Source of the DNA: an uncultured Eisenbergiella sp.
GTDB lineage: Bacteria; Bacillota; Clostridia; Lachnospirales; Lachnospiraceae
Direction of reading: 5' to 3'
NCBI GenBank assembly: GCA_948960675.1
Contig: CARDPF010000078.1
Coordinates: forward strand, 1 to 11,745
DNA: 11,745 nucleotides
The translations under genes were made by a program, and so were the position numbers. Within the stretch, counting starts at the first letter, position 1, and each line of letters begins with the position of its first letter. A model generated the notes under the pieces. The model made no database searches. It had not been told where the DNA came from and saw only the letters and a program-made list of their open reading frames with translations. Shown here piece by piece: positions 766-11,745 of the stretch.

Positions 766-1495
766 ATAGGACAGCCTTTAAAATCCGCCCAGCATCGCTC
801 CCCGGCGGCAAATTGCCTGCACCGTCATAAACCTTCCTGCGGTATCCTGCAAGCCATCCAATCATCTCCTCCGTCCCGGAAAGCAGGGGAACCGTACTCT
901 CCGGAAGCTGCAGCATGTCTTCCAGTTCCCCGATACAGCGCGCCAGCATCATTTCCAGCCTGCGCACGGAAAGCAGCTTTGGCTCTGCCTCCCGGATACG
1001 CTCCTTAAGCCTTTCGAAAGCGACATCGCCAAAAAACCAATGCTGTAGCCTGCATTCCTCCCAGACCGCCCCCAAATCCGGCTCCTCCTTTTCCACCGCC
1101 TCTGCCTTTCTGGAACGGGCCTTATACTTTTCCACGATCCTCTCCAAAACCGTATCACAGTGATCCAATTCCATGGAGGTCTTGGAAATGTAATCCAGAC
1201 CGCCGAGGCGCAAGGTCGCCTGCACATAGGAAAAATCTTCAAAAAAGGAAAGCACCACAAACTCTATGTCCGGCTTTTGCCTGCGGCACTCCTCCATGAA
1301 AACGATGCCGTTCATTTCCGGCATGTCAATATCCACAAACACCAGATCCACCGGGTGCTGCACAATAAACTGCAGGGCCGCCTTTCCGTTTTGCACGTCC
1401 CCCACCACCGTCATGCCAAATGCCTCCCAGTTCATCAAGGATACCAGGCCTTTGCGCGCCAGTTTATCATCATCGACTATCAAAACCCTGATCAT
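677..1495 (-). CDS. YesN-like response regulator, receiver and linker part (frameshifted, lacks its own DNA-binding domain)
   Basis: The first 120 residues form a receiver domain. The acidic pocket VDDD is at residues 7-10, the phosphoacceptor Asp is D55 in FVDIDMPEMNG, S83 sits in VLSFF, and K105 is in YISKTS (the usual KP is KT here). A linker of about 120 residues follows. The frame then leaves the expected AraC domain after GRILKAVLY and runs out of frame to a stop at 677. The domain continues in the 451-765 frame, so this is the N-terminal part of a frameshifted gene. The start chosen is ATG 1495 (MIRVLIVDDD), with AGAGGG close upstream. ATG 1507 or GTG 1519 in the same frame are possible but have poorer ribosome binding sites. 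It overlaps the kinase gene by 26 nt, so the two are probably translationally coupled. In the family, phosphorylation by the cognate YesM kinase activates transport genes. Confidence 0.85.
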   Translation of the reverse strand: MIRVLIVDDDKLARKGLVSLMNWEAFGMTVVGDVQNGKAALQFIVQHPVDLVFVDIDMPEMNGIVFMEECRRQKPDIEFVVLSFFEDFSYVQATLRLGGLDYISKTSMELDHCDTVLERIVEKYKARSRKAEAVEKEEPDLGAVWEECRLQHWFFGDVAFERLKERIREAEPKLLSVRRLEMMLARCIGELEDMLQLPESTVPLLSGTEEMIGWLAGYRRKVYDGAGNLPPGSDAGRILKAVLYEGTPWGGFIHQYGSGSYRLQQKLFLHYI

Positions 1496-3242
1496 CTTCC
1501 CTCTCATTCTGCCGCGCACAGCGTTTGCCCGCCTGCAGCGGAATCATTATGGTGACTTTTGTCCCTCTTCCCAGTTCACTGTTGATCGTAAGGATACAAT
1601 TGCTTCCGTAAAACCCTTCCAGACAATGCCGCACATAGCGCAGTCCGATTCCCTCCATTTCCTCCGTCCCGCTTCCCCTATAGCAAAATGGCCGGTTCAA
1701 TTCCTCCAGCTTTTCCCTGTCAAGCCCCTCCCCAAAATCCTGAATGGTAAGTACCGCATAGCCGCGCCGTTCGTCACAGAAAATCCGGATTTCGATCATG
1801 TCCTTCTCGCCCAGTCCGTAGCGGAGTGCATTTTCAATCAACGGCTGGAGAAGCATCCGGATGGTCTCCGTCTCCAAATAATCTCCCTGCTCCACTTCCA
1901 GCACTACTTCAAAGTCATACCGCTGCTTTTGCAGGCTGATGTATTTTCTGGCAATTTCCACCTCCGTGCGCAGGGTGCTGGTCTTTTCCTCTTTCCCCAG
2001 GTTATACGCCAACAGCGCCTTGAAATCCGAAAGGAAGCGGCTGATCTGTTCCTGCTTTGCCAGCTGTGCCATCCATTGTACGGAGTTTAAGGTATTGAGC
2101 AGAAAATGCGGATTGATCTGATACATCAATTTTTCCCGCTCGGTCTTTTGCCGCTTTTCTTCCTCCTCCTGCACATTTAAAAGCAATTTGCGGATCTGGA
2201 TTTTCATCTCATTGATCTGGTGCATCAGTTCGTTAAATTCCCGGATCTCCATATCCTCGCTGACCAGTTCCAGCTTTCCCTTCCCCACTGCAATAATCGC
2301 CTGTTCCAGACGGTCAATGGGATTGCCCAGCATCTTTTTGGTGGCAAACACCAGCAGGGCCACCGGTACAAGGGAAAACAGACACAAAACCACAATCCGT
2401 TCATACCACTCCCACATTTCTTTCTGGTACCTGGCCAGCGGCACACCGTTCACATACACAAAACCCATCTTGGAGGTTCTTGCCACCAGATAATACCCCT
2501 CATACTCTCCCGCAAAGCTGCCGTTTTCATCCGGCAAAAGACGCAGCGTATCCCCTTTTTGAAAATCGCTGCAATTGGCAAAAAGTACCCTTCCGTCCTT
2601 ATCCAGCTGCAGGCTGATATAGGAGCTGTCCCCTTCCCCCTGTCCGTATTTCCCGATATTGGCCTTCATTTCGATATAAATGTCATACTCGTTTCCCGCA
2701 TAACGCTGTCCCTGCCGCAGCATGGAAACCATGATCGCGGTGCTGTAATTGGTACAGGAAGGGTGCAGGGCCTCAAAACGGTTCCCGTCGATCTGCATGA
2801 TATCGTCCGCCTCCAAAATCCCCCTGTCCGCAAAGCACTCATTTTCAAACAGCGATACCTTTGTGGCGCTGTCCAAATAAGCGGCATAATGGACGTAAGG
2901 ATTGGTAAAGCCTATGGAAACAATTTCGTTTTCCAGTTCCCGCTTGCGTGTGAACCTGTCAAAATTATTTTCCGCCTGCAGATAATTGAGCAGCATCGTG
3001 CCTGTGCTTCCTCCCTCTCCCAGCTGCTGCATCATCCTGACCATGGTAAAATAGCAAAACTCCAGATGTTCCACTTCCTTGTTAATATTGGTTTTCATGG
3101 CATCCTCCATCCGGTTCTGCCGGATGGAACGGATGGTGACATAGGAAACCATGACGCAGGACCAGATACCGGCCAACAGGCCGATAATACCGATCAGCAA
3201 AATCCGCCCCTGAAATGACCGGATAATCTTTCCCTTCCTCAT
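1470..3242 (-). CDS. YesM-type sensor histidine kinase
   Basis: This is a 590-residue membrane sensor kinase. A first membrane helix lies at about residues 14-36, an extracytoplasmic sensing region at about 37-275, a second helix at about 282-300 (IVVLCLFSLVPVALLVFA), and a HAMP linker at about 301-355. The kinase core follows, with the phospho-accepting H379 in QINPHFLLNTLNSVQWMA, characteristic of the His_kinase/YesM (LytS-like) family. The ATPase has an N box around N471 (LLQPLIENALRYG), DFGEGL at 502-507 and GIGLRYV at 531-537. Its cognate regulator is the YesN-like gene downstream, which it overlaps. Its ATG shares the sequence ATGA with the stop of the upstream HisJ-like gene, and only a weak ribosome site is seen, so translation probably depends on coupling. 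Family members sense extracellular sugars or peptides, usually via transporter components; the ligand here is unknown. Confidence 0.93.
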   Translation of the reverse strand: MRKGKIIRSFQGRILLIGIIGLLAGIWSCVMVSYVTIRSIRQNRMEDAMKTNINKEVEHLEFCYFTMVRMMQQLGEGGSTGTMLLNYLQAENNFDRFTRKRELENEIVSIGFTNPYVHYAAYLDSATKVSLFENECFADRGILEADDIMQIDGNRFEALHPSCTNYSTAIMVSMLRQGQRYAGNEYDIYIEMKANIGKYGQGEGDSSYISLQLDKDGRVLFANCSDFQKGDTLRLLPDENGSFAGEYEGYYLVARTSKMGFVYVNGVPLARYQKEMWEWYERIVVLCLFSLVPVALLVFATKKMLGNPIDRLEQAIIAVGKGKLELVSEDMEIREFNELMHQINEMKIQIRKLLLNVQEEEEKRQKTEREKLMYQINPHFLLNTLNSVQWMAQLAKQEQISRFLSDFKALLAYNLGKEEKTSTLRTEVEIARKYISLQKQRYDFEVVLEVEQGDYLETETIRMLLQPLIENALRYGLGEKDMIEIRIFCDERRGYAVLTIQDFGEGLDREKLEELNRPFCYRGSGTEEMEGIGLRYVRHCLEGFYGSNCILTINSELGRGTKVTIMIPLQAGKRCARQNEREDDQGFDSR

Positions 3243-4030
3243 AGTAAGCCTGTCCGGGCAATGATGCCCATGTCATCCAGCCTTTTGTACGCCGCCTCCA
3301 CAATGTCATCATAAACCTGCGCAGGGTCATGGCAGTCCGAGCCTACATACACGGCAATCCCCGTACCCTTCACCCGTTCCCAAAACTTCTCATGGGGATA
3401 CTGGTAACGTTCCCCGTCCGGATACCGCTTTTTTTCCCGCCGGAACCCGTTGGCATTATATTCCAGTGCAAAACCATACTTGACAGCACCGTCGATGAGA
3501 ATGTCACAGGCCCGGTCACAATGCACATCCCATGCCGAATCGTTTAAAAAAATCAGGTCAGGATGGGCCGCATAGGCAAAATAGCCCGTGCGCATCGCTT
3601 CCACTACATTGGCGCTGTAGATTTCATATCCTGCCGTATCCCGAAGCTGATACACATTGATCAGTTCCCCCTGACTGGTCTCATAAAAATGTTGTCCCAA
3701 AATCAGATAAGAACATCCCCCGCCGGAAAGCAGTCTTTCATAATAATCCCGGTCTTTGCGCACATATTCCCCCTCAAAGCCGCAAAGAATGTCTATCTTA
3801 TCCCGAAATTCCACTGACAGGGACGCAATTTCCTGCTGGTACTCCCCCAGTTCTACATACGGCATGCGCAGTCCGAAACGGTCGTCATAAAAAGGCATAT
3901 GGTCGGAAAATCCAAGCCTGACCACCCTGCTTTTGACCGCCTCCTCCACATACTCCCGGGCCTCTCCACGGGCGTGCCGGCACCGTCTGCAATGTGTATG
4001 ATAATTTACCCTTTCCCGCTCCTGCCCCAT
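3239..4030 (-). CDS. HisJ-family PHP-domain phosphatase (histidinol-phosphatase-like)
   Basis: This is a PHP-superfamily metal-dependent phosphoesterase of 263 residues from the chosen start. Expected metal ligands are visible: HTH (H11, H13), H19, SDH at 42-44, E86 in GFEGEY, H114 in GQHFYE, H156 in AHPD, E190 in LEYNANG, and SDCHD at 231-235. HisJ enzymes dephosphorylate histidinol phosphate in histidine synthesis, but no other his gene is here. The gene is instead coupled to a sensor kinase, so a sugar-phosphate or other substrate is possible. ATG 4030 is preferred because GGAGG lies just upstream and because the TATAAT at 4096-4101 would leave a leader of about 59 nt. The in-frame ATG at 4072 adds 14 residues but lacks a ribosome site and would have a leader of only about 17 nt. 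It is the first gene of the operon and overlaps the kinase start by 4 nt. Confidence 0.88.
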   Translation of the reverse strand: MGQERERVNYHTHCRRCRHARGEAREYVEEAVKSRVVRLGFSDHMPFYDDRFGLRMPYVELGEYQQEIASLSVEFRDKIDILCGFEGEYVRKDRDYYERLLSGGGCSYLILGQHFYETSQGELINVYQLRDTAGYEIYSANVVEAMRTGYFAYAAHPDLIFLNDSAWDVHCDRACDILIDGAVKYGFALEYNANGFRREKKRYPDGERYQYPHEKFWERVKGTGIAVYVGSDCHDPAQVYDDIVEAAYKRLDDMGIIARTGLL

Positions 4031-4095
4031 ACTCCTCCGTTCCGCCGCCAAAGATGGCGTTGTCCTTTGCATGTTTTTACTTTGATTGATATTTC

Positions 4096-4101
4096 ATTAT
4101 A
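4096..4101 (-). promoter_or_regulatory. Candidate -10 element for the hisJ-kinase-regulator operon
   Basis: A perfect TATAAT is read on the minus strand, 24 nt upstream of the outer ATG (4072) and about 65 nt upstream of the preferred ATG (4030). The sequence 17 nt upstream (TGGATG region) is a poor -35 match. The promoter may therefore be weak or activator-dependent. It lies between the end of the SGNH gene's hairpin and the operon it would serve. Confidence 0.5.
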
Positions 4102-4199
4102 CCGCTTTTTCCCCCAAACATCCATCCGGAATTGTTTTTCTTTTGGAAGAAAAATTTTACCATTCTAAAAATTGTTCTTTTCAGACAGGCCATTTTTTA

Positions 4200-4233
4200 A
4201 AGGCGGCGAAATCCCAAAGATCTCCGCCGCCTT
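4200..4233 (-). terminator. GC-rich hairpin after the MBOAT-SGNH genes, probable terminator
   Basis: A perfect 9-bp stem pairs AAGGCGGCG (4200-4208) with CGCCGCCTT (4225-4233) around a 16-nt loop. It starts 12 nt past the SGNH stop codon. On the minus strand only TTT follows the stem before TAAAAAATGG, so the U-tract is poor and termination may be inefficient. No plus-strand gene reads towards it. Confidence 0.55.
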
Positions 4234-4245
4234 CCCGTTGTCCCT

Positions 4246-5346
4246 TTATTTTTCCATAAAACCGTTCGCATCCGCCGCGATACCTTCTGAAACCGGTTTT
4301 GCCTCCACCGCACCGTTCTCCATCAAAAACTGTTTCCATATCTTATAGTATTTCGCCTTCAAATGCACCTGGTCATTGCTAAAGCCTTCCGACAGGTTTC
4401 CGTTTTCATCACAGAGCCGACCGTTTACATCCAGGAAAAAAACCGTTTTCCCGTCGGCCAACGTCGCAATTTTTTCGTTCCTTTCCTTAATATTGGTATT
4501 GTTAAAAACGGGATCCGACGCATTTTTTTGCGCCCCCACATGCATAATGGCCTGCACAAAAATAACCGCGTCCGGCTGCAGGCGCATAATTTCCCGGACC
4601 ACTTTTTGGTATTCCCCAAAAAAAGTATCTGCCGTACCGGTTCCCATCTCGTTAATTCCGATCATCAGGTAAATTTTTTGAAATGACCGTGCCCCCAGGG
4701 CCTCTTTTAGCGTAATATTGCGCCCGTCCTCCTTGATAAAAGCCTTCTCCTTCTTAAAAAGATCATACACCGTCAGGGATGTTTTGCAGTAAAAGGTCAC
4801 TTGCTCCCCGAAACCGCCATACTCATACAAACCCTGGGTGCGGGAATCCCCGATGAACAGCGCGTCGTCAAAATAAGACTCTTCCACCGGGCCAAGTGCC
4901 AAAACAGCCTGCTCCTCCCTGTCCTGCCCTGCAGCCTCCCCCTGCCCCTCTTGCACCGGGGGAAAATCCCCATTTCCTTGGGCCGCGGACGCACCTTTGC
5001 CCTCCCCTTCCAAACGGGCTTGGGTTTCCCCGGCCGTTTCCTGACAAACCTCTTCAAAATCCGGCGGCTTTTGCACACTCTCCTCCCCGCTTTGTCCTAC
5101 AGCCTCCCCAGTCTCCTGTCCCGCCTGCGAAACCCCTCCCACAGCAAGGGCCTCCTGTGCCGTGGACGTCCACGGATACACGCCTTCTCGGATTCCCCAG
5201 AAAAAAGCGCCCAACACCGGGGTCATCACCGTTTCCCCCTTATACTCCCTGTATACACCGTTCCGATTTATCCAGCTGACTGCCGTTATCATAAGCCCGC
5301 CGGCCAATACCAGAGAAAGCAGCGGACATTTATTCCAAAAACCCAT
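4246..5346 (-). CDS. Membrane-anchored SGNH/GDSL hydrolase-like protein, partner of the MBOAT acyltransferase
   Basis: The protein has 366 residues with one N-terminal membrane helix (about 8-25, LLSLVLAGGLMITAV). A low-complexity Gly/Glu/Gln/Ala linker follows at about 62-150. The SGNH domain then shows block I GDSRT (S168), the block III-like GINEMG (N232) and block V DQVH (D325, H328). The domain should face outside the membrane. Such proteins next to AlgI/DltB-like MBOAT genes are the usual second half of glycan O-acylation systems, transferring or trimming acyl groups. That role is inferred from family and context; plain esterase activity is the alternative. ATG 5346 is chosen because TGAGG stands 6 nt before it. 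The GTG at 5358 lies within that ribosome site and is unlikely. The start is 18 nt past the MBOAT stop codon, so the two genes form one operon. Confidence 0.85.
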   Translation of the reverse strand: MGFWNKCPLLSLVLAGGLMITAVSWINRNGVYREYKGETVMTPVLGAFFWGIREGVYPWTSTAQEALAVGGVSQAGQETGEAVGQSGEESVQKPPDFEEVCQETAGETQARLEGEGKGASAAQGNGDFPPVQEGQGEAAGQDREEQAVLALGPVEESYFDDALFIGDSRTQGLYEYGGFGEQVTFYCKTSLTVYDLFKKEKAFIKEDGRNITLKEALGARSFQKIYLMIGINEMGTGTADTFFGEYQKVVREIMRLQPDAVIFVQAIMHVGAQKNASDPVFNNTNIKERNEKIATLADGKTVFFLDVNGRLCDENGNLSEGFSNDQVHLKAKYYKIWKQFLMENGAVEAKPVSEGIAADANGFMEK

Positions 5347-5364
5347 AAAAAACCTCACAATTTT

Positions 5365-6774
5365 TCAAAAATTCGCATACATGAAAGGATTCCCCTGCAT
5401 ATTTGTGATTCTGTATACCGCAGCCCAAAAAAGTACCGCCAATGCCATTACCACACATTTGTTCTTTTTGTGCCGTTCATACCATTTCCACACTGCCGGG
5501 ACACAAAAGAAAATCCCTGCCCCCACCGCAGGCGCAAAGGCCGACAATTCTTTTACAAAATCATTGACATTGACTGAAACCCCACTCCCAAAAAGGCAAA
5601 AAAGCCTTGAAAAATAAACCCCGATATCCGCAAAAGACGGAATCGCAAAAATCATCCAGGTAAACGGTATGAGCAATAGCACATACAGATGGGAAAAAAA
5701 CGCATGCCGTTTCAAAAATTTCCCCAGTCCCTGCTTTTCTGCAATCAGCAAAACGGCAAGCACCAGCCCCCAAACCACAAAATTCAGGCTGCCCCCGTGC
5801 CAGAAACCGGTCAGTCCCCATACGATCAAAATGTTCCGCAATGTCCTGGCCGTTCCCCTGCGGTTGCCCCCCAATGGAATATATACATAATCCCGAAACC
5901 AGCTCCCCAGCGTCATATGCCATTTCCTGTAAAACTCACCCACACAGCGGGACGCATAAGGCTGGTCAAAGTTTTGAATCGCGGGAAACCCCATCATTTC
6001 CCCGATTCCCACCGCAATCAGGGAATATCCGGCAAAATCAAAATACAGCTGCAAAGAATAGCCAAACATCCCAAGCCATGCAAGCGGCGTGGAAATACTC
6101 TCAAACCCGATGGTACAGATATCGTTCCATAAAATACCCAGCCGGTCCGCCAGCAAAACCTTTGCGGCAAGGCCGAGCACCAGCTTCTTAAGCCCCTCCT
6201 CCATTCCTTCCCATGTGATCCTGCCGTATTTCATTCCCTTCTGCGCATCCCGGTAACGCATAATCGGCCCGGATACAATCTGCGTAAAATTGCACAGGTA
6301 TGCGCCAAAATGCACAAAAGAAGGCTCCACATCCACTTCCAGACGGTAAACGTCGATCAGGTAGGACAGGCTTTTGAAAGTATAAAAACTCAGCCCAACC
6401 GGCAGCAAAAACCCGCTGTCCAGCGCGTTGGAAATTTTAAAATATACCAGCAAAAGGACATTGCAGGAGACCGAAACCGCCAGCCAAAGCTTCCTCTTTC
6501 TTTTTTCCGTCCCGCTCTGGAACACCGAAAGCTTTTCCATGCTTTTGCCAAACAGATAGTTCATTACTGCCATTCCCAAAAGCAGCAGTACATATTTGGG
6601 TTCCCCTACTGCATATAAAAGCAGGCTTCCCGCAAACAGCACCGCCCCCCGAAACCGCTGGGGCGTCAGGGCATAAACTGCCAAAAAAACTGGCAGATAC
6701 CGGAACAAAAATTCCAGGCTGCCAAATACCAATGTGTTCAAACCTGTAAAATTTACCGTTCCGATTCCTGCCAT
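5365..6774 (-). CDS. AlgI/DltB-like MBOAT family O-acyltransferase
   Basis: This is a 469-residue polytopic membrane protein with about ten hydrophobic segments. Family signatures appear in order: PVGLSFYTFKSLSYLIDVYR (125-144), QIVSGPIMRY near 165-174, YFDFAGYSLIAVGIGEMMGF near 244-263, FYRKWHMTLGSWFRDYVYIP (281-300, H286), and GFWHG with the predicted catalytic H326. MBOAT proteins of this group move an acyl group, often acetyl, across the membrane for attachment to a polysaccharide or teichoic acid. The adjacent SGNH gene fits that. The glycan target is not visible. ATG 6774 is taken as the start, although its ribosome site (GGGACGG, about 10 nt away) is weak. Typical family members begin near LVFGSLEFL, so a TTG at 6741 or 6732 is an alternative. 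The gene begins 66 nt after ackA and may be read from the pta promoter. Confidence 0.92.
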   Translation of the reverse strand: MAGIGTVNFTGLNTLVFGSLEFLFRYLPVFLAVYALTPQRFRGAVLFAGSLLLYAVGEPKYVLLLLGMAVMNYLFGKSMEKLSVFQSGTEKRKRKLWLAVSVSCNVLLLVYFKISNALDSGFLLPVGLSFYTFKSLSYLIDVYRLEVDVEPSFVHFGAYLCNFTQIVSGPIMRYRDAQKGMKYGRITWEGMEEGLKKLVLGLAAKVLLADRLGILWNDICTIGFESISTPLAWLGMFGYSLQLYFDFAGYSLIAVGIGEMMGFPAIQNFDQPYASRCVGEFYRKWHMTLGSWFRDYVYIPLGGNRRGTARTLRNILIVWGLTGFWHGGSLNFVVWGLVLAVLLIAEKQGLGKFLKRHAFFSHLYVLLLIPFTWMIFAIPSFADIGVYFSRLFCLFGSGVSVNVNDFVKELSAFAPAVGAGIFFCVPAVWKWYERHKKNKCVVMALAVLFWAAVYRITNMQGNPFMYANF

Positions 6775-6802
6775 TTTCTCATTCCGTCCCTTATCCTCCT
6801 GC

Positions 6803-6838
6803 CTTTGGGATTGCCGCCCCCCAAAGACAAAAGTCTTT
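6803..6838 (-). other. Two overlapping short hairpins in the ackA-MBOAT gap
   Basis: On the minus strand, AAAGAC-TTTT-GTCTTT (6838-6823) begins 2 nt after the ackA stop. It overlaps a second possible stem, CTTTGGG (6825-6819) with CCCAAAG (6809-6803). The two share CTTT, so only one can form at a time. Neither is followed by a U-tract, so a simple terminator is unlikely. They lie just before AGGAGG (6799-6794). Confidence 0.35.
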
Positions 6839-6840
6839 CT

Positions 6841-8028
6841 TCACTTTACAAGCGCATATGTCTGTCTTGCAATTGCCAGTTCCTCGTTGGTCGGAATCAC
6901 AAAAACTTTTGTCCGGGATTTGGGCGTTGTAATGACAATCTCCCCACCGCGCTTACGGTTTGCCTCCTCGTCCAGCGTAATACCTAAGTAGCCCAGATAC
7001 GTATTGCAAATCTTATCGCGCATAAACGCGCTGTTCTCCCCAACCCCGGCAGTGAAGCAGATCGCATCCACCCCATTCATGGCGGCCACATACGCGCCGA
7101 TATATTTTGCCGTGCGCAGCGCAAACACTCCCAAGGCCCTCTCCCCTTTTTCCAAACCGTTCTCCAAATCACGGAAATCGGAGGAGAACCCACCGGAAAG
7201 CCCCAACACACCGGATTCCTTGTTCAAAATGTTTATGATTTCGCCGATGGACTTTCCTTCCTTATTGGCGATAAACCCTAAAATGGATGGATCCAGGTCA
7301 CCGCTCCTGGTGCCCATGGCCAATCCCTCCAGAGGCGTCATCCCCATGGAAGTGTCCACACATTTGCCGTATTTTACGGCTGATACAGATGCACCGTTTC
7401 CCAGATGGCAAACGATGATTTTCAGGCTTTCATACGGTTTGCCAAGAAGCTGCGCCGCCCTGTGGGACACGTAGTCATGGCTCGTTCCGTGAAATCCGTA
7501 TTTCCTGATTTTATATTGTTCATAGTAGCGGTAAGGAATCGCGTACAGGTACGCCTCTTCGGGAAGCGTCTGATGGAATGCCGTATCAAATACCGCTGCC
7601 ATGGGCACACCGGGCAGCAGCGCCTCACACGCCTCCACCCCGATTAAATTTGCCGGATTATGAAGAGGCGCCAACTCACTGCACGCCGCGATGGCTTCCT
7701 TGACCTCTTTCGTAATCAGGCAGGCCTTGGAAAACGCTTCCCCGCCATGCACAATCCGGTGTCCCACCGCCCCGATCATGGAAAGATCCCTGACCACACC
7801 GGTCTCTCGGTCAGTCAGGGCATCCAATACCAGTGAAACCGCCTCCCGGTGATTGCCCATGGGAACCTGTCTGCTCCATTTCTTGTGACCCGCAGCCGAA
7901 AACGTGATCTGGCTGCCGCCGATACCAATTCTCTCACATAATCCTTTCGCTGTCAATTCCTCAGTTTGCGCATCTATAAGTTGGAATTTCAGGGAGGAAC
8001 TTCCACAGTTTATTACCAATATATGCAT
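6841..8028 (-). CDS. ackA: Acetate kinase
   Basis: This is a full-length 395-residue acetate kinase, the normal size for the family. It catalyses acetyl phosphate + ADP to acetate + ATP, the energy-yielding last step of acetate fermentation, in the cytosol. The ASKHA fold signatures are all present: N7 in VINCGSSSLKF, R91 in GHRIVHGG, D148 in FDTAFH, H180 in YGFHGTSHDYV, the phosphate loop HLGNGAS, R241 in GTRSGDLDP, GVGENS near 329, and E382/E383 in PTNEE. The numbers coincide with the well-studied Methanosarcina enzyme. The start ATG 8028 has GGAGG about 7 nt upstream. It follows pta by 133 nt with no obvious terminator between them, so co-transcription from the pta promoter is likely. Nothing looks degraded. 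Confidence 0.97.
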   Translation of the reverse strand: MHILVINCGSSSLKFQLIDAQTEELTAKGLCERIGIGGSQITFSAAGHKKWSRQVPMGNHREAVSLVLDALTDRETGVVRDLSMIGAVGHRIVHGGEAFSKACLITKEVKEAIAACSELAPLHNPANLIGVEACEALLPGVPMAAVFDTAFHQTLPEEAYLYAIPYRYYEQYKIRKYGFHGTSHDYVSHRAAQLLGKPYESLKIIVCHLGNGASVSAVKYGKCVDTSMGMTPLEGLAMGTRSGDLDPSILGFIANKEGKSIGEIINILNKESGVLGLSGGFSSDFRDLENGLEKGERALGVFALRTAKYIGAYVAAMNGVDAICFTAGVGENSAFMRDKICNTYLGYLGITLDEEANRKRGGEIVITTPKSRTKVFVIPTNEELAIARQTYALVK

Positions 8029-8161
8029 GTATCACCCTCCGTCCGTAACACTTCAACCCAAACAGTACAGGCCCATCCGCCCTATTTAGGCATTCCCCGC
8101 CAAAATTGCTGCGCGTACAGACCGTTATCCCTGCCTGAACCCTTGTCCCACAAACCAAGCG

Positions 8162-9163
8162 CTACATCAACTGCGCCTGCACAGCGGTCAGGGCTACTAC
8201 ACCCACGATATCCTCCCAGGAACACCCCCTGGAAAGATCGTTGACCGGCTTTGCGATTCCCTGCAGCATCGGGCCGTATGCCTCCGCTTTGGCCAACCTC
8301 TGTACCAGCTTATAGCCAATGTTGCCACAGTCCAAATTGGGGAAAATCAGCACGTTTGCCTTCCCCCCCACTTCACTGCCGGGCGCCTTGGACTTTGCTA
8401 CGCTGGGCACAATGGCCGCATCGGTCTGCAGTTCCCCGTCCAGCGTCAGGGATGGATATTGTTCATGTGCAATCTGCACGGCTTGCGCCACCTTATCGAC
8501 CAGGGGATGCTTGGCACTGCCTTTGGTGGAATGGGAAAGCATGGCGATAATCGGCTTGGCTCCCACCAACGTCTTAAAACTCTTGGCACTGGTATCTGCA
8601 ATCGCCGCCAGTTCTTCCGCACTGGGATCCTGGTTCAGTCCGCAGTCTGCAAACAAAAACGTACCGTTCTCCCCAAACTCACAATTGGGAACATCCATGA
8701 TAAAGAAGCCGGACACCAGCTTCACGCCCGGCGCAGTCTTTAAAATCTGCAGGGCGGGACGCAGGGTATCCGCCGTCGCGTGACAGGCGCCCGCCACCAT
8801 ACCGTCTGCATCGTTGGCCTTGACCATCACCACGCCAAAGGTCAGGCTGTCGCTAAGCAGGATCTCCCGCGCCTTCTCCGGTGTCATCCCCTTGTTTTTC
8901 CTCGTCTCGTAAAGAAGTTCCACGTACTCTTCCAGCTTATCATAATGGTTGGGATCCACCACGGTCACCCCGTCAAGATCCAGTTCCAGCCAGCCGGCGC
9001 CGTCCATGATCTTCTCCTCATTGCCGATCATGACAATATCCGCAATCTTCTCCTCCAAAATATGCGCCGCCGCAATCAACGTCCTTCTGTCATTGGTCTC
9101 CGGCAGCACGATGGTCTTTTTGTCGATCCTTGCCTTTTCCTTGATAATATCAATGTAAGACAT
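8162..9163 (-). CDS. pta: Phosphate acetyltransferase
   Basis: This is a 333-residue short-form Pta: the catalytic PTA_PTB domain only, without the N-terminal regulatory domains of the enterobacterial enzyme. It converts acetyl-CoA + phosphate to acetyl phosphate + CoA, feeding AckA. Recognisable blocks are VLPETNDRRTLIAA (about 19-32), DGMVAGACHATADTLRPAL, SGFFIMDVPN, FADCGLNQDPSAEELA, AMLSHSTKGSAKHP, DGELQTDAAIVP and the C-terminal VLIFPNLDCGNIGYKLVQRL. ATG 9163 is the start, since AAGGAG lies 8 nt before it. The GTG at 9172 sits directly against that ribosome site and could not use it. The stop TAG lies at 8164-8162. The gene is preceded by a strong extended -10 promoter. Confidence 0.97.
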   Translation of the reverse strand: MSYIDIIKEKARIDKKTIVLPETNDRRTLIAAAHILEEKIADIVMIGNEEKIMDGAGWLELDLDGVTVVDPNHYDKLEEYVELLYETRKNKGMTPEKAREILLSDSLTFGVVMVKANDADGMVAGACHATADTLRPALQILKTAPGVKLVSGFFIMDVPNCEFGENGTFLFADCGLNQDPSAEELAAIADTSAKSFKTLVGAKPIIAMLSHSTKGSAKHPLVDKVAQAVQIAHEQYPSLTLDGELQTDAAIVPSVAKSKAPGSEVGGKANVLIFPNLDCGNIGYKLVQRLAKAEAYGPMLQGIAKPVNDLSRGCSWEDIVGVVALTAVQAQLM

Positions 9164-9204
9164 CCCCTTCACTCCTTTCCGCCTATCTTCCCTATTTAAT
9201 TTAA

Positions 9205-9320: not shown

Positions 9321-9360
9321 GCATCCGCCCATTAAAATCGCTGCGCAATGGGGCGGATGC
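9321..9360. repeat. Palindrome 2 between the HEPN gene and pta
   Basis: GCATCCGCCC (9321-9330) and GGGCGGATGC (9351-9360) pair perfectly over 10 bp. Three more pairs (ATT/AAT) follow after a one-base bulge. The hairpin begins 35 nt past the HEPN stop codon. The minus-strand flank CAAAACAGGGC is not U-rich, so a classical terminator is not supported. The loop contains AAAATCGCTGCGC, close to AAAATTGCTGCGC in the pta-ackA gap (8102-8114). Confidence 0.6.
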
Positions 9361-9394: not shown

Positions 9395-9907
9395 TTATAG
9401 CTTTTTCCGAAACATAATATAGTAGCAGTTGAGGCAAAAATCATTGCATTCCCTTTTTTCGTGCGGTAAACACTCCAGCAGCTTGCTTTTTGTCTTGGGA
9501 TTTTGCAGTTCTTCCCGCAAATTATCCCGAATACCGTTGATGTCCAAAAAAACGCCGATTTCCTTCATCGCCTGATCGAGTTTACGCTTCTCTACAAGAA
9601 AATCCATGTCATAGCGGGCTTGCGCCTCCCACTCCCCAAGCATTTCTGAATGGTCGTCAACCCAGTCGGTTATAATAAGGTTTGCCCCATGATCGGATAT
9701 CATTTTCACCAGTTTTGATATCTTATGGGTATTCGGAACCGTTACCCCCACACACTCCAAAGCGCCTTTTAGTACCTTTTCAACCGCCTGCTGCAAATGG
9801 TATGCCGCATTATTCAATATCAATTCATCATAAAAAGAGCTTTTCCAAATCATTGCCGCTGTTTCATAATCCATCTTTGCACTTCTGAATAACCGGATAT
9901 CACACAT
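9395..9907 (-). CDS. HEPN domain protein of an MNT-HEPN pair, with a Cys-rich tail
   Basis: The protein has 170 residues. The HEPN fold is recognisable from LNNAAYHLQQAVEKVLKGAL (31-50), PNTHKISKLV (58-67) and WEAQARYDMDF (93-103), the last matching the family's usual ARYP block. No R-X4-6-H sequence, the RNase signature of HepT-type toxins, occurs anywhere. RNase activity is therefore not supported, and a binding or scaffold role is possible. After the HEPN part, the tail carries C146, H149, C154, C158 and C161 (CX2HX4CX3CX2C), a spacing that could bind a metal. The start is ATG 9907, with AAAGGA 6 nt upstream; a TTG at 9922 is less likely. It overlaps the nucleotidyltransferase stop by 8 nt, so the genes are translationally coupled. 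Such pairs usually form toxin-antitoxin or phage-defence modules. Confidence 0.82.
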   Translation of the reverse strand: MCDIRLFRSAKMDYETAAMIWKSSFYDELILNNAAYHLQQAVEKVLKGALECVGVTVPNTHKISKLVKMISDHGANLIITDWVDDHSEMLGEWEAQARYDMDFLVEKRKLDQAMKEIGVFLDINGIRDNLREELQNPKTKSKLLECLPHEKRECNDFCLNCYYIMFRKKL

Positions 9908-10256
9908 CTTCTTTCCTTTCAAAAAGTAATAAACCCGTCCGTTCTATTTTTTGATATAACGGATTATCTGCCCTAAGGTTTGTTATAATATCAATTTCAC
10001 AATCCAAATCCGGAAGATACCTCAACTTTTGGGCGGGGTCATATTTTTCAATATAGAGATCAATATCACTGTTGCTGCTACACCGAAATTCCAATGAACT
10101 GCCAAATAATATCATTCTGCAAATATTCGGATCCTTTTCCAATTCTCGGACCAGCTTTTCTATCCTTCCCTGCATCAGCGGGTGTATACGATTCGCATTT
10201 TGTAAAGCTACCCCTTCCATTACCGGAAAATCCCACATATTCTCCATCTGGTTCAT
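9900..10256 (-). CDS. MNT-type minimal nucleotidyltransferase
   Basis: This 118-residue protein has the polymerase-beta-like minimal nucleotidyltransferase signature. G52-S53 in LFGSSLEF is followed by D64 and D66 in SDIDLYIE, and the third carboxylate is D89 in EIDIIT. All catalytic positions appear intact. In characterised MntA-HepT pairs the MNT enzyme adds nucleotides to its HEPN partner and neutralises it. That mechanism is inferred here, because the partner lacks the usual toxin motif. The N-terminal stretch of about 45 residues, before the beta strand leading to GS, is slightly long for the family. The start ATG 10256 has AGGAGG 5 nt upstream, an excellent site. It is the first gene of a two-gene operon under a recognisable promoter at 10285-10313. 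A transferase acting on another target cannot be excluded. Confidence 0.85.
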   Translation of the reverse strand: MNQMENMWDFPVMEGVALQNANRIHPLMQGRIEKLVRELEKDPNICRMILFGSSLEFRCSSNSDIDLYIEKYDPAQKLRYLPDLDCEIDIITNLRADNPLYQKIERTGLLLFERKEDV

Positions 10257-10284
10257 AGCACCCTCCTACTTCCCCCACTCCTAC

Positions 10285-10313
10285 AGTATAAATAATCCAC
10301 CACCAAAATACAA
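10285..10313 (-). promoter_or_regulatory. Promoter of the MNT-HEPN operon
   Basis: On the minus strand, TTGTAT (10313-10308), a 17-nt spacer and TATACT (10290-10285) form a good sigma-70 type promoter. It lies about 29 nt ahead of the MNT start codon. The left copy of the 9-bp direct repeat is 20 nt further upstream, so the palindromic insertion sits just behind this promoter. Confidence 0.65.
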
Positions 10314-10333
10314 CCACTTTCGCACTACGGCCC

Positions 10334-10342
10334 AAGGTTTCG
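10334..10342. repeat. Left 9-bp direct repeat (putative target-site duplication)
   Basis: AAGGTTTCG here is identical to 10680-10688. The two copies exactly abut the outer ends of the terminal inverted repeats of the palindromic element, as a target-site duplication should. Confidence 0.7.
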
Positions 10343-10354
10343 CACGGAAATCGT

Positions 10355-10384
10355 GTAACAGTTCAGACAAGTCTGACCTGTTAC
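10355..10384. repeat. 30-bp palindrome near the left end of the element
   Basis: GTAACAGTTCAGAC (10355-10368) and GTCTGACCTGTTAC (10371-10384) are inverted copies with one mismatch, separated by AA. It could be a hairpin in RNA or a binding site for a dimeric protein such as a transposase. It has no counterpart at the right end. Confidence 0.7.
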
Positions 10385-10392
10385 CGGAAACC

Positions 10393-10669
10393 AATTTTGC
10401 GGGAGGGGACTTCCCGGCAGCCCACAGGGGACGCATAGCCATTACAGGCTTGCAAGGCTTGCGGACGGGAAATTCCCCCAGAAAGCAGGCGTTCCTAAAC
10501 ACAACAGGGCACAAAAAACGCACTGCGTTTGTACGGTTTTGCGCCCTGTTGCAGGGACAGCCTGCTTTTTGGGGGGATTTCTCCGTCCGCAAGCCAGCAG
10601 CCTGTAATGGCTATGCGTCCCCTGTGGGCTGCCGGGAAGTCGTCCCTGCCTCTCCCCTCCCGCAAAATT
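10393..10669. repeat. 277-bp long imperfect inverted repeat
   Basis: The outer arms AATTTTGCGGGAGGGG (10393-10408) and its complement (10654-10669) match over 16 nt. A 42-nt perfect block follows (10409-10450 against 10599-10640), with about 13 extra bases in the right arm between these two blocks. GGCTTGCGGACGG (10456-10468) matches 10583-10595, then come imperfect blocks around GCAGGC/GCCTGC. The apex is AACAGGGC (10503-10510) with GCCCTGTT (10543-10550), enclosing AAACGCA-C-TGCGTTT (10516-10530). A transcript of either strand would fold into one hairpin of about 120 paired bases. No U-tract follows on either side. Confidence 0.9.
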
Positions 10670-10679
10670 AATTCCCGTG

Positions 10680-10688
10680 AAGGTTTCG
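10680..10688. repeat. Right 9-bp direct repeat (putative target-site duplication)
   Basis: AAGGTTTCG is identical to 10334-10342. It ends one base before the -35 element of the tmcAL promoter. Confidence 0.7.
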
Positions 10689-10689
10689 T

Positions 10690-10718
10690 TTGAACTGTAC
10701 AGAAAACTATGCTATGCT
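10690..10718 (+). promoter_or_regulatory. Promoter of tmcAL
   Basis: TTGAAC (10690-10695), a 17-nt spacer and TATGCT (10713-10718) form the promoter. The -10 is preceded by TGC, giving an extended -10. Transcription would begin near 10725, leaving a leader of about 40 nt. The element's right flank touches this -35, so upstream activator or UP-element sequences would now come from the insertion. Confidence 0.6.
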
Positions 10719-10745
10719 GATAGCAGGTTTTGGTACTTTCATAGT

Positions 10746-10751
10746 AAGGAG
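10746..10751 (+). promoter_or_regulatory. Ribosome binding site of tmcAL with long spacing
   Basis: AAGGAG lies 13 nt before the tmcAL ATG (10765), longer than the usual 5-9 nt. No in-frame start codon lies closer to it. The ATG at 10752 next to it is in another frame. Confidence 0.5.
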
Positions 10752-10764
10752 ATGCCGGATATAC

Positions 10765-11745
10765 ATGAAAACCACAGGAATCATCGCCGAGTACAATCCC
10801 TTCCATAACGGACACCAATTTCATTTGGAGCAGGCCCGCAGACAAACCGGGGCCGATTATATCGTCGCCATAATGAGCGGGGATTTTGTCCAGCGGGGAA
10901 CCCCGGCGGTCACAGACAAGCACCTGCGCGCAAAAGCCGCGCTTCTTGGGGGGGCAGACCTTGTTCTGGAACTCCCCGTATTTTTTGCCACCGGCAGCGC
11001 AGGGGATTTCTCGGCAGGTGCGGTTTCCCTGCTAGACAAGCTTGGCGTCGTAGACGCCCTCTGCTTTGGCAGCGAATCCGGCACGGCATCCGCCTTCCGG
11101 CAGGCCGCCGCTTTTCTTGCGGATGAACCGGAAGAATTTTCATCCGCCCTGAAAAGCAATCTGCGGCGTGGCTATTCCTTCCCCTTATCCCGTTCCATGG
11201 CCCTGCAAAGCTGCCTTTCTGCCTCCGCTTCCTGCAACCAACCAACAGGCGGCACGGCAGAAGCTTTCCCCGATATCCTATTGGCGGATCTTTTCGCAGC
11301 GCCGAACAATATTCTGGGCGTTGCCTATTGTACCGCGCTGCACAAAAGAAACAGCACGATCACTCCCGTCGCAATCCGGCGCAAAGGGGACGGCTACCAT
11401 GCCGACACCCTCCCTGCCAAAACCGGTTGCAATCTTCCCTTTCCCTCGGCGCAGGCCATCCGCCGCACCCTGCAGAACATGCAGGAGCGTCCGGACGCTT
11501 CCGCTTTTTTGGCTTATCTGCCAAAAAATCTGTTTCCCCTCTGGGAAAACGTCCTTTTGCAGAATGCGTTTTTATTTCCGGAGGACTTTACCAAAGAACT
11601 GCGCTGCCGCCTCCTTCTGGAAGAAAAAGACGGCTTTACCCGCTATGCGGACGTTCCCAAGTCCCTGTCCGACAAGCTTTACAAAAACTGCCTGTCCTTT
11701 ACCGACTGGGAGTCCCTGTGCCATACGCTCAAATCCAAAGAACTG
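10765..11745 (+). CDS. tmcAL: tRNA(Met) cytidine acetate ligase (TmcAL/YlbM), 3' end outside window
   Basis: The first 327 codons are present with no stop; the family is about 400 residues long, so about a fifth is missing. The N-terminus MKTTGIIAEYNPFHNGHQFHL carries the nucleotidyltransferase HXGH motif (H14, H17), followed by MSGDFVQRGTPAV (37-49), a hallmark of the YlbM group. Later family blocks are AKAALLGGADLVLELPVFFATGSAGDFS, LCFGSESG, PNNILGVAY and SAQAIRR. The enzyme activates acetate with ATP to acetyl-AMP and forms N4-acetylcytidine at the wobble position 34 of elongator tRNA-Met, in the cytosol. It is transcribed away from pta-ackA, which makes its substrate, acetate. Its start has a distant ribosome site (10746-10751) and the promoter abuts the palindromic insertion. 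Earlier annotations often call this family a plain nucleotidyltransferase. Confidence 0.93.
   Translation, partial: MKTTGIIAEYNPFHNGHQFHLEQARRQTGADYIVAIMSGDFVQRGTPAVTDKHLRAKAALLGGADLVLELPVFFATGSAGDFSAGAVSLLDKLGVVDALCFGSESGTASAFRQAAAFLADEPEEFSSALKSNLRRGYSFPLSRSMALQSCLSASASCNQPTGGTAEAFPDILLADLFAAPNNILGVAYCTALHKRNSTITPVAIRRKGDGYHADTLPAKTGCNLPFPSAQAIRRTLQNMQERPDASAFLAYLPKNLFPLWENVLLQNAFLFPEDFTKELRCRLLLEEKDGFTRYADVPKSLSDKLYKNCLSFTDWESLCHTLKSKEL

What the first reader, a model, noticed from the sequence alone, without database searches (positions are those of the whole stretch)
10334..10688. Complete MITE-like element with terminal inverted repeats and an exact 9-bp target duplication, built around a 277-bp palindrome
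Three independent signs line up to the base: identical AAGGTTTCG copies at 10334-10342 and 10680-10688; inverted ends CACGGAAAT / ATTCCCGTG directly inside them; and a long palindrome with a 42-nt perfect arm block filling the interior. It has no gene of its own. The internal structure (30-bp palindrome plus a hairpin of about 120 paired bases) is much larger than a typical REP or simple MITE. It may be an undescribed family of non-autonomous element, or a source of long double-stranded RNA.
Basis: seen in the sequence. Interest (0 to 1): 0.75.

Follow-up and report, generated by a model that had tools for sequence, protein, structure and literature searches.

The report
Palindromic mini-transposon carrying a nested mini-transposon
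A 337-base hairpin-forming stretch of DNA in an uncultured gut-type bacterium is a transposon without genes, one of a family seen in a sister species, and an even smaller 30-base transposon of another type sits inside one of its ends.

Summary
In detail: 10343-10679 is nearly all one hairpin (139 pairs, 43-nt perfect arms) with ends CACGG..CCGTG and an exact 9-bp duplication AAGGTTTCG. It belongs to a mobile family. A sister species (G415, 86-90% identical over 7.7 kb of the window) has 40-42 sites with this end; 396 other genomes drawn from the family have at most 2 each. Four complete G415 elements (64, 127, 217, 547 bp) have the same ends and four different 9-bp duplications. So it is a non-autonomous transposon (MITE).

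One correction: the 30-bp palindrome 10355-10384 is a second, nested element. Alone it has 42, 40 and 87 copies in three genomes. Of 35 copies read, 13 carry an 8-bp duplication at the exact edge with 0-1 mismatch (control 0.25%). An IS66-type element in G010 has the same ends and an 8-bp duplication. In the window the duplication is CGGAAATC/CGGAAACC, inside the CACGG end.

No transposase with CACGG ends was found, in a limited search. Nothing supports a double-stranded RNA role. New member of a known kind; the 30-bp unit is the more striking part.

The parts
10334..10342 (.). left 9-bp target-site duplication AAGGTTTCG
   Evidence: same length in four G415 relatives
10680..10688 (.). right 9-bp target-site duplication AAGGTTTCG
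10343..10679 (.). the mobile unit: palindromic CACGG-family MITE, 337 bp including the nested 30-bp element
10343..10352 (+). outer part of the left terminal inverted repeat, CACGGAAATC
10345..10352 (.). left copy (CGGAAATC) of the 8-bp duplication made by the nested element; two extra bases GT follow (10353-10354)
   Evidence: read from sequence, 7 of 8 match the right copy
10355..10384 (.). nested 30-bp palindrome GTAACAGTTCAGACAAGTCTGACCTGTTAC: two abutted IS66-type ends
10385..10392 (.). right copy (CGGAAACC) of the nested element's 8-bp duplication
10393..10407 (+). rest of the left terminal inverted repeat, AATTTTGCGGGAGGG
10408..10450 (+). left perfect arm, 43 nt
   Evidence: (I1)
10465..10590 (+). 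core hairpin shared (about 80% identity) with three other palindromic repeats of G415, more weakly with others
10599..10641 (-). right perfect arm, 43 nt
   Evidence: (I1)
10642..10654 (+). 13 nt present in the right arm only (unpaired in the fold)
10659..10679 (-). right terminal inverted repeat (reverse complement CACGGGAATTAATTTTGCGGG)

Best explanation
Two nested non-autonomous DNA transposons. The outer unit (10343-10679) is a MITE of a family that is abundant, as far as seen, in one Lachnospiraceae genus. It ends in CACGG(A/G)AAT(C/T)NATTTTGC, forms one long hairpin, and is moved in trans by a DDE-type transposase that cuts at CACGG and duplicates 9 bp. The inner unit (10355-10384) is a 30-bp element made of two abutted IS66-type ends. 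It is moved in trans by an IS66-type transposase that duplicates 8 bp, and it landed in the left end of a CACGG element. Shown: the ends, relatives with different 9-bp and 8-bp duplications, a full IS66-type element with the inner unit's ends, and another inner unit inside a CACGG-type end in G415. Inferred: the trans-acting transposases, the class of the outer one, and the order of events.
For: Outer: the end pattern occurs 40 times in G415 and at most twice in each of 144 other relatives of G001; a second pattern 42 times against at most 2 in each of 396 others. Complete elements with 9-bp duplications: window AAGGTTTCG, L169 ACAATTCCC, L181 CTTTTCCGA (exact), L164 and L171 (8 of 9). A search for any inverted ends with an 8-9-bp duplication over 100 G415 stretches (815,029 bases) returned 5 hits, 3 of them CACGG elements; those 3 lie among the 20 stretches fetched because they hold the end. 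Inner: 42, 40 and 87 copies in G010, G233, G272. 13 of 35 distinct copies read have 8-bp duplications at offset 0 with 0-1 mismatch; tested at 5, 6, 7, 9 and 10 bp 0-1 copies do; control 0.25% of flank pairings. In G415 4 of 7 copies. L130: IS66-type gene (PF03050 E 6.5e-18; NCBIfam IS66 E 1.1e-37, under that model's cut-off) between GCAACAGTTCAGAC and GTCTGAACTGTTAC with TAATTGGA on both sides (one extra C on the right), beside a 105-bp element with the same ends and a third TAATTGGA. L205: a 30-bp unit with exact 8-bp duplication CGTAAAAT inside the end variant CGCGGAAATCAATTTTACG.
Against: No transposase with CACGG ends was found: PF01609, PF06782 and PF03050 gave none in G415 (for PF06782 the controls did not ring), and of two IS256-type pieces in G415 the longer (L293) shows no CACGG end by eye, the other ends with its contig. 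Other transposase families were not searched. G415 has no IS66 match, so present mobility there is unproven. Of 25 G415 ends examined, 7 belong to the four complete elements, 7 run off a contig within 90 bp, and 11 have no partner in the stretch held, so many copies are truncated or mosaic. 22 of the 35 30-bp copies lack a clean 8-bp duplication at offset 0. The window's inner duplication is 7 of 8 with two extra bases. No empty site was found for this insertion. A possible relative in G444 (L136) means the outer family may not be confined to one genus.
Confidence: 0.86

Rival explanations
1. The long palindrome is not a transposon. It is a repetitive extragenic palindrome spread and reshaped by recombination and template switching, and only the 30-bp IS66-type unit transposes.
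For: 11 of 25 CACGG ends in G415 have no partner in the stretch held; the core occurs in repeats with other outer ends; no helper transposase was found.
Against: Five complete elements carry 9-bp duplications with 0-1 mismatch where chance predicts about 0.15; lengths of 64 to 547 bp with the same ends fit a unit defined by its ends.
Confidence: 0.08
2. It is a transcribed structured RNA or double-stranded RNA source.
For: Very stable fold, z -21.8; in the core alignment pair 44-90 is GC in 4, UA in 4 and AU in 1 of 10 sequences.
Against: No Rfam match at gathering score or at E up to 1; no promoter-like site in 10200-10900; it lies between divergently oriented genes; the covariation term is only -0.2 kcal/mol; Watson-Crick symmetry follows from DNA palindromy; complete relatives differ in length from 64 to 547 bp.
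Confidence: 0.03
3. Outer and inner units are moved by one IS66-type enzyme and the CACGG ends are only its preferred target.
For: IS66-like end sequence lies just inside (C/T)ACGGAAATC in the window, L197, L211, L174 and C95, with some variation in its letters.
Against: L164, L169, L171 and L181 have CACGG-type ends and 9-bp duplications without a 30-bp unit in the sequence read; the middle of L169 reads N. Duplication lengths differ, 9 against 8.
Confidence: 0.03

Closest known systems
Bacterial MITEs, e.g. MITECca01 of Cardinium (PMC9769881, passages seen)
   Same: Short, gene-less, inverted ends, many copies, depends on an enzyme in trans
   Different: MITECca01 (about 240 bp) has a parental IS982-family element in the same genome; here no parent of the outer unit was found. 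The outer unit is almost wholly one hairpin and its arms differ between copies.
IS66 family (PMC11946415, passage seen: ends beginning GTAAGCG, 8-bp repeats)
   Same: The 30-bp unit begins GTAA and leaves 8-bp repeats; the L130 element has GCAAC at one end and GTAAC at the other
   Different: Ends are GTAACAGTTCAGAC; the L130 transposase scores 130 bits against the NCBIfam cut-off of 180; the unit is two ends with 2 bp between them
Small dispersed repeats of cyanobacteria (Elhai et al. 2008; only a reference-list line and one mention seen; the rest recalled)
   Same: Very small mobile repeats, of about 20-30 bp (size recalled)
   Different: Here a full-length IS with the same ends and an 8-bp duplication point to the likely enzyme
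REPINs (PMC3116915, passages seen)
   Same: Short extragenic palindromic repeats, described there as miniature mobile DNA
   Different: Here target duplications are present; a RAYT-type partner was not searched for
PATEs and small mobile repeats of Haloquadratum (PMC3119063, passages seen)
   Same: Gene-less palindromic elements, including small elements inserted in others
   Different: PATEs are described as having no terminal inverted repeats and making no target duplications

Membership tests
MITE (outer unit) | terminal inverted repeats | tested here: met
MITE (outer unit) | target-site duplication of fixed length with differing sequence | tested here: met
   five complete elements, 9 bp, 0-1 mismatch
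MITE (outer unit) | multiple copies, no transposase gene | tested here: met
   40-42 ends in G415; the three listed ORFs of over 100 aa that overlap the window element have no Pfam match
MITE (outer unit) | ends shared with an autonomous parent | tested here: inconclusive
   none found; G415 is a fragmented assembly and other transposase families were not searched
IS66-derived element (30-bp unit) | ends shared with an IS66-type element | tested here: met
   L130
IS66-derived element (30-bp unit) | 8-bp target duplication | tested here: met
   13 of 35 copies read, control 0.25%; window copy 7 of 8 with a 2-nt offset
IS66-derived element (30-bp unit) | an IS66 gene with these ends in the same genome | tested here: inconclusive
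   IS66 genes in G010, G233 and G272, none in G415; of 10 loci examined only L130 has the matching ends within the stretch held; window genome not held
REP/REPIN | associated RAYT gene | not tested
   RAYT not searched; target duplications are present here
PATE | no terminal inverted repeats, no target duplication (PMC3119063) | tested here: not met
Structured RNA of a known family | match to an Rfam model | tested here: not met

The most novel reading that the evidence does not exclude
The 30-bp unit is a transposon at the physical lower limit: two transposase-binding ends back to back, with only 2 bp between them, that still transposes in trans with normal 8-bp duplication and reaches 40-87 copies per genome. 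The long CACGG palindromes are elements whose two arms are copied from each other (template switching or conversion), so that each copy stays self-complementary while copies drift apart.
Probability: 0.4. Interest if true: 0.68.

Novelty: new member of a known kind. Interest (0 to 1): 0.48.

Why it matters
It adds a family of mostly palindromic mini-transposons in a gut-type Lachnospiraceae genus. It also gives an unusually clear case of a 30-bp mobile repeat whose likely enzyme is pointed to by a full-length IS with the same ends and the same duplication length. That makes directly testable how small a transposon can be, a question that tiny dispersed repeats have left open. Several of the palindromes sit at contig ends, so they also seem to break short-read assemblies.

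Tried and rejected
Searches without useful hits: blastn of the window element in plasmids and phages and of L181 in plasmids; six viral-contig patterns (none; three matches, which by their flanks look unrelated); Rfam; the long palindrome by blastn in 397 family genomes (2 of 397 with one weak short match each). The ISLre2 loci of two other genomes and two IS66 loci showed no convincing bracketing ends. Transposase hunt for CACGG ends: PF00872 in 7 genomes (two hits in G415, one in G003), PF01609 and PF06782 in G415 (none). IS4 and ISLre2 elements give 9-bp repeats (PMC8024623, passages seen), so they remain guesses by duplication length only.

Dropped readings: that the window is a clean empty site for the G415 insertion beside pta. 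Similarity is clear up to the CACGG end, but the window carries other sequence there and the aligner ran on across the boundary with gaps. In the other 162 loci a search for CACGG-like ends with 9-bp duplications gave 20 hits with 0-1 mismatch; 17 look like chance, and three overlapping ones in L136 (G444) were first dropped and are now listed under noticed in passing. Literature searches listed no paper on these sequences; they cover open-licence papers only and cannot look for the letters.

Full report
What is there. AAGGTTTCG stands at 10334-10342 and 10680-10688; directly inside are CACGGAAAT and ATTCCCGTG; the interior is one long palindrome with a 43-nt perfect block. As a single strand it folds at -253.3 kcal/mol against -123.4 for shuffles, with 139 pairs in 10343-10679. 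It lies between a nucleotidyltransferase gene (9900-10256, minus; PF18765), which is followed by a HEPN gene (9395-9922, minus; PF05168), and a tmcAL-like gene (10765 onward, plus; PF05636; the gene name is recalled). The three listed ORFs of over 100 aa that overlap the element have no Pfam match.

Host. No genome is held for the window. A scan of one genome per species for the tmcAL-like protein confirmed 219 relatives, of which 80 were kept; the best, in Eisenbergiella, is 53% identical. Among 145 relatives of that genome (G001), G415 turned out to be a sister species: 86% identical over window 4096-8041, 90% over 8142-9196, 88% over 1470-4080 (query coordinates converted). The tmcAL side of the window has no gene match in G415, so the site of this insertion cannot be compared.

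The outer unit is a transposon family. The end pattern CACGGRAATYAATTTTGCGGG (up to 3 mismatches) occurs 40 times in G415 and at most twice in each of the other 144 genomes. A second pattern (up to 2 mismatches) occurs 42 times in G415 and at most twice in each of 396 other genomes drawn from the family. Of the 25 places listed I fetched 20 stretches. Four elements there are complete: L164 (127 bp, TTTTTCTGG/CTTTTCTGG), L169 (547 bp, ACAATTCCC twice; much of its middle reads N), L171 (64 bp, ACATGCAAA/ACATACAAA) and L181 (217 bp, CTTTTCCGA twice). L171 and L181 are near-complete hairpins; in L164 the two arms differ beyond the ends. Over the window and 130 G415 loci (some overlapping) 1,395 pairs of CACGG-like ends were formed; flanking 9-mers agree with 0 mismatches in 3 pairs, 1 in 2, 2 in none, 3 in 18, and more beyond. 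The first five are the window element and the four above. A search not told the end sequence, over 100 G415 stretches of 815,029 bases, returned five pairs of inverted ends with an 8-9-bp duplication, three of them CACGG elements; all three are in the 20 stretches chosen for the end, and the 80 others held no complete CACGG element.

Evidence against neatness. Of 25 ends examined at up to 3 mismatches, 7 belong to complete elements, 7 reach a contig end within 90 bp, and 11 have no partner in the stretch held. Some of these have other inner sequences or a second end type (GTTACTTTTCACGG..). The family is therefore partly mosaic or decayed. At the pta locus of G415 a CACGG end abuts sequence shared with the window; the window has different sequence there, and the pairwise alignment runs some twenty columns past the boundary with gaps, so this is a suggestive boundary, not a clean empty site.

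The core and the arms. The core 10465-10590 is shared, at about 80%, with L187, L188 and L190 and more weakly with others. In a 10-sequence alignment 4 of 19 predicted pairs, 3 of them in the inner stem, keep pairing through changes on both sides, best at pair 44-90 with GC, UA and AU; the covariation term is small, -0.2 kcal/mol. Outward from the core, the two arms of one copy match in 65 of 67 (window) and 70 of 74 (L187) aligned positions, gaps not counted, while arms of different copies match in 61-74%, with alignment scores of -5.8 to 15 against a best of 9 for 200 shuffles. L190's arms match in 56 of 73 over the stretch taken; L188's left arm reads N. With only two full cases this suggests, but does not prove, that arms are copied from each other.

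The nested unit. 10355-10384 is a 30-bp palindrome found on its own elsewhere: 30 blast matches in G010, Lachnospiraceae bacterium CE91-St56, some of them the two strands of one site, and by pattern 42, 40, 87, 3, 2 and 1 copies (175) in G010, G233, G272, G126, G382 and G291, none in the other 391 of 397 genomes. I read 35 distinct copies of these 175, chosen by the tools' ranking and not at random. 13 have an 8-bp duplication with 0-1 mismatch at the exact edge; with 5, 6, 7, 9 or 10 bp only 0-1 copies do; flanks of different copies match so in 0.25% of 1,190 pairings. The other 22 have weaker or no duplication at that place. In G415 4 of 7 distinct copies do.

The likely enzyme. In G010 an IS66-type gene (507 codons; PF03050 E 6.5e-18, NCBIfam IS66 E 1.1e-37 but 130 bits against a cut-off of 180) lies between GCAACAGTTCAGAC and GTCTGAACTGTTAC, with TAATTGGA on both sides (one extra C at the right edge). 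Next to it a 105-bp element with GTAACAGTTCAGAC ends is followed by a third TAATTGGA. IS66 elements are described with ends beginning GTAAGCG and 8-bp repeats (PMC11946415, passage). Nine other loci holding IS66 genes or pieces in G010, G233 and G272 show no such ends within the stretch held. No IS66 match was found in G415.

Nesting. In the window the 30-bp unit is flanked by CGGAAATC (10345-10352, then GT) and CGGAAACC (10385-10392): 7 of 8. With the insert left out, the left end aligns to the right end along its whole length. A cleaner case is L205 in G415: a 30-bp unit with exact CGTAAAAT on both sides inside the end variant CGCGGAAATCAATTTTACG. IS66-like end sequence, with some changed letters, also lies directly inside (C/T)ACGGAAATC in L197, L211, L174 and C95, so this spot was hit repeatedly or a composite end was amplified; the data do not decide.

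Mechanism. Most likely each unit is cut and joined by a DDE transposase supplied in trans, with a 9-bp stagger for CACGG and 8 bp for GTAAC. For the inner unit the enzyme class is supported by L130. For the outer it is unknown: the longer IS256-type piece of G415 has no CACGG end where read, DDE_Tnp_1 and UPF0236 (ISLre2) models found nothing in G415, and other families were not searched. A role as RNA has no support.

Novelty and weight. The literature searches listed no paper on these sequences. The outer unit is a new family of a known kind, the MITE. The inner one resembles the very small mobile repeats known elsewhere but comes with a named candidate enzyme, which makes it the more useful of the two.

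Noticed in passing
L136 1474-1578 (genome G444): Two head-to-tail 48-bp hairpins with ends TAAGGAAATCAATTT / TACGGAAATCAATTTT(G/A)CC, separated and flanked by CATATAACT, CATATAACT, CATATAATT: a possible distant relative of the CACGG family in another genome.
   Followed up: partly
window 9321-9360: A hairpin-like repeat by eye (GCATCCGCCCATT..AATGGGGCGGATGC; the inverted-repeat finder did not report it) with relatives in G415 (C94, C43, C156, C207); a similar GCATCCAGCCCATT sequence borders several 30-bp units in G272 and G233.
   Followed up: partly
window 9395-10256 (minus): A HEPN gene and a nucleotidyltransferase gene overlap, like a HepT-MntA type toxin-antitoxin pair (that name is recalled); the second has weak PADLOC matches to PDC-S09.
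   Followed up: no
L163, L200, L202, L209, L210: A second end type, GTTACTTTTCACGG.. with variants, in G415 repeats; in four of these five loci it lies beside the core shared with the window element. Its duplication, if any, was not determined.
   Followed up: no
L130 486-2501: An IS66-type element and a 105-bp element with near-identical ends lie side by side with three copies of TAATTGGA, as if both used one target.
   Followed up: partly
G415 contig ends (L164, L165, L173, L176, L178-L180, L200, L202, L207, L209, L210): Many of these palindromes sit at contig ends, so they probably break short-read assemblies and copy numbers are likely underestimates.
   Followed up: no
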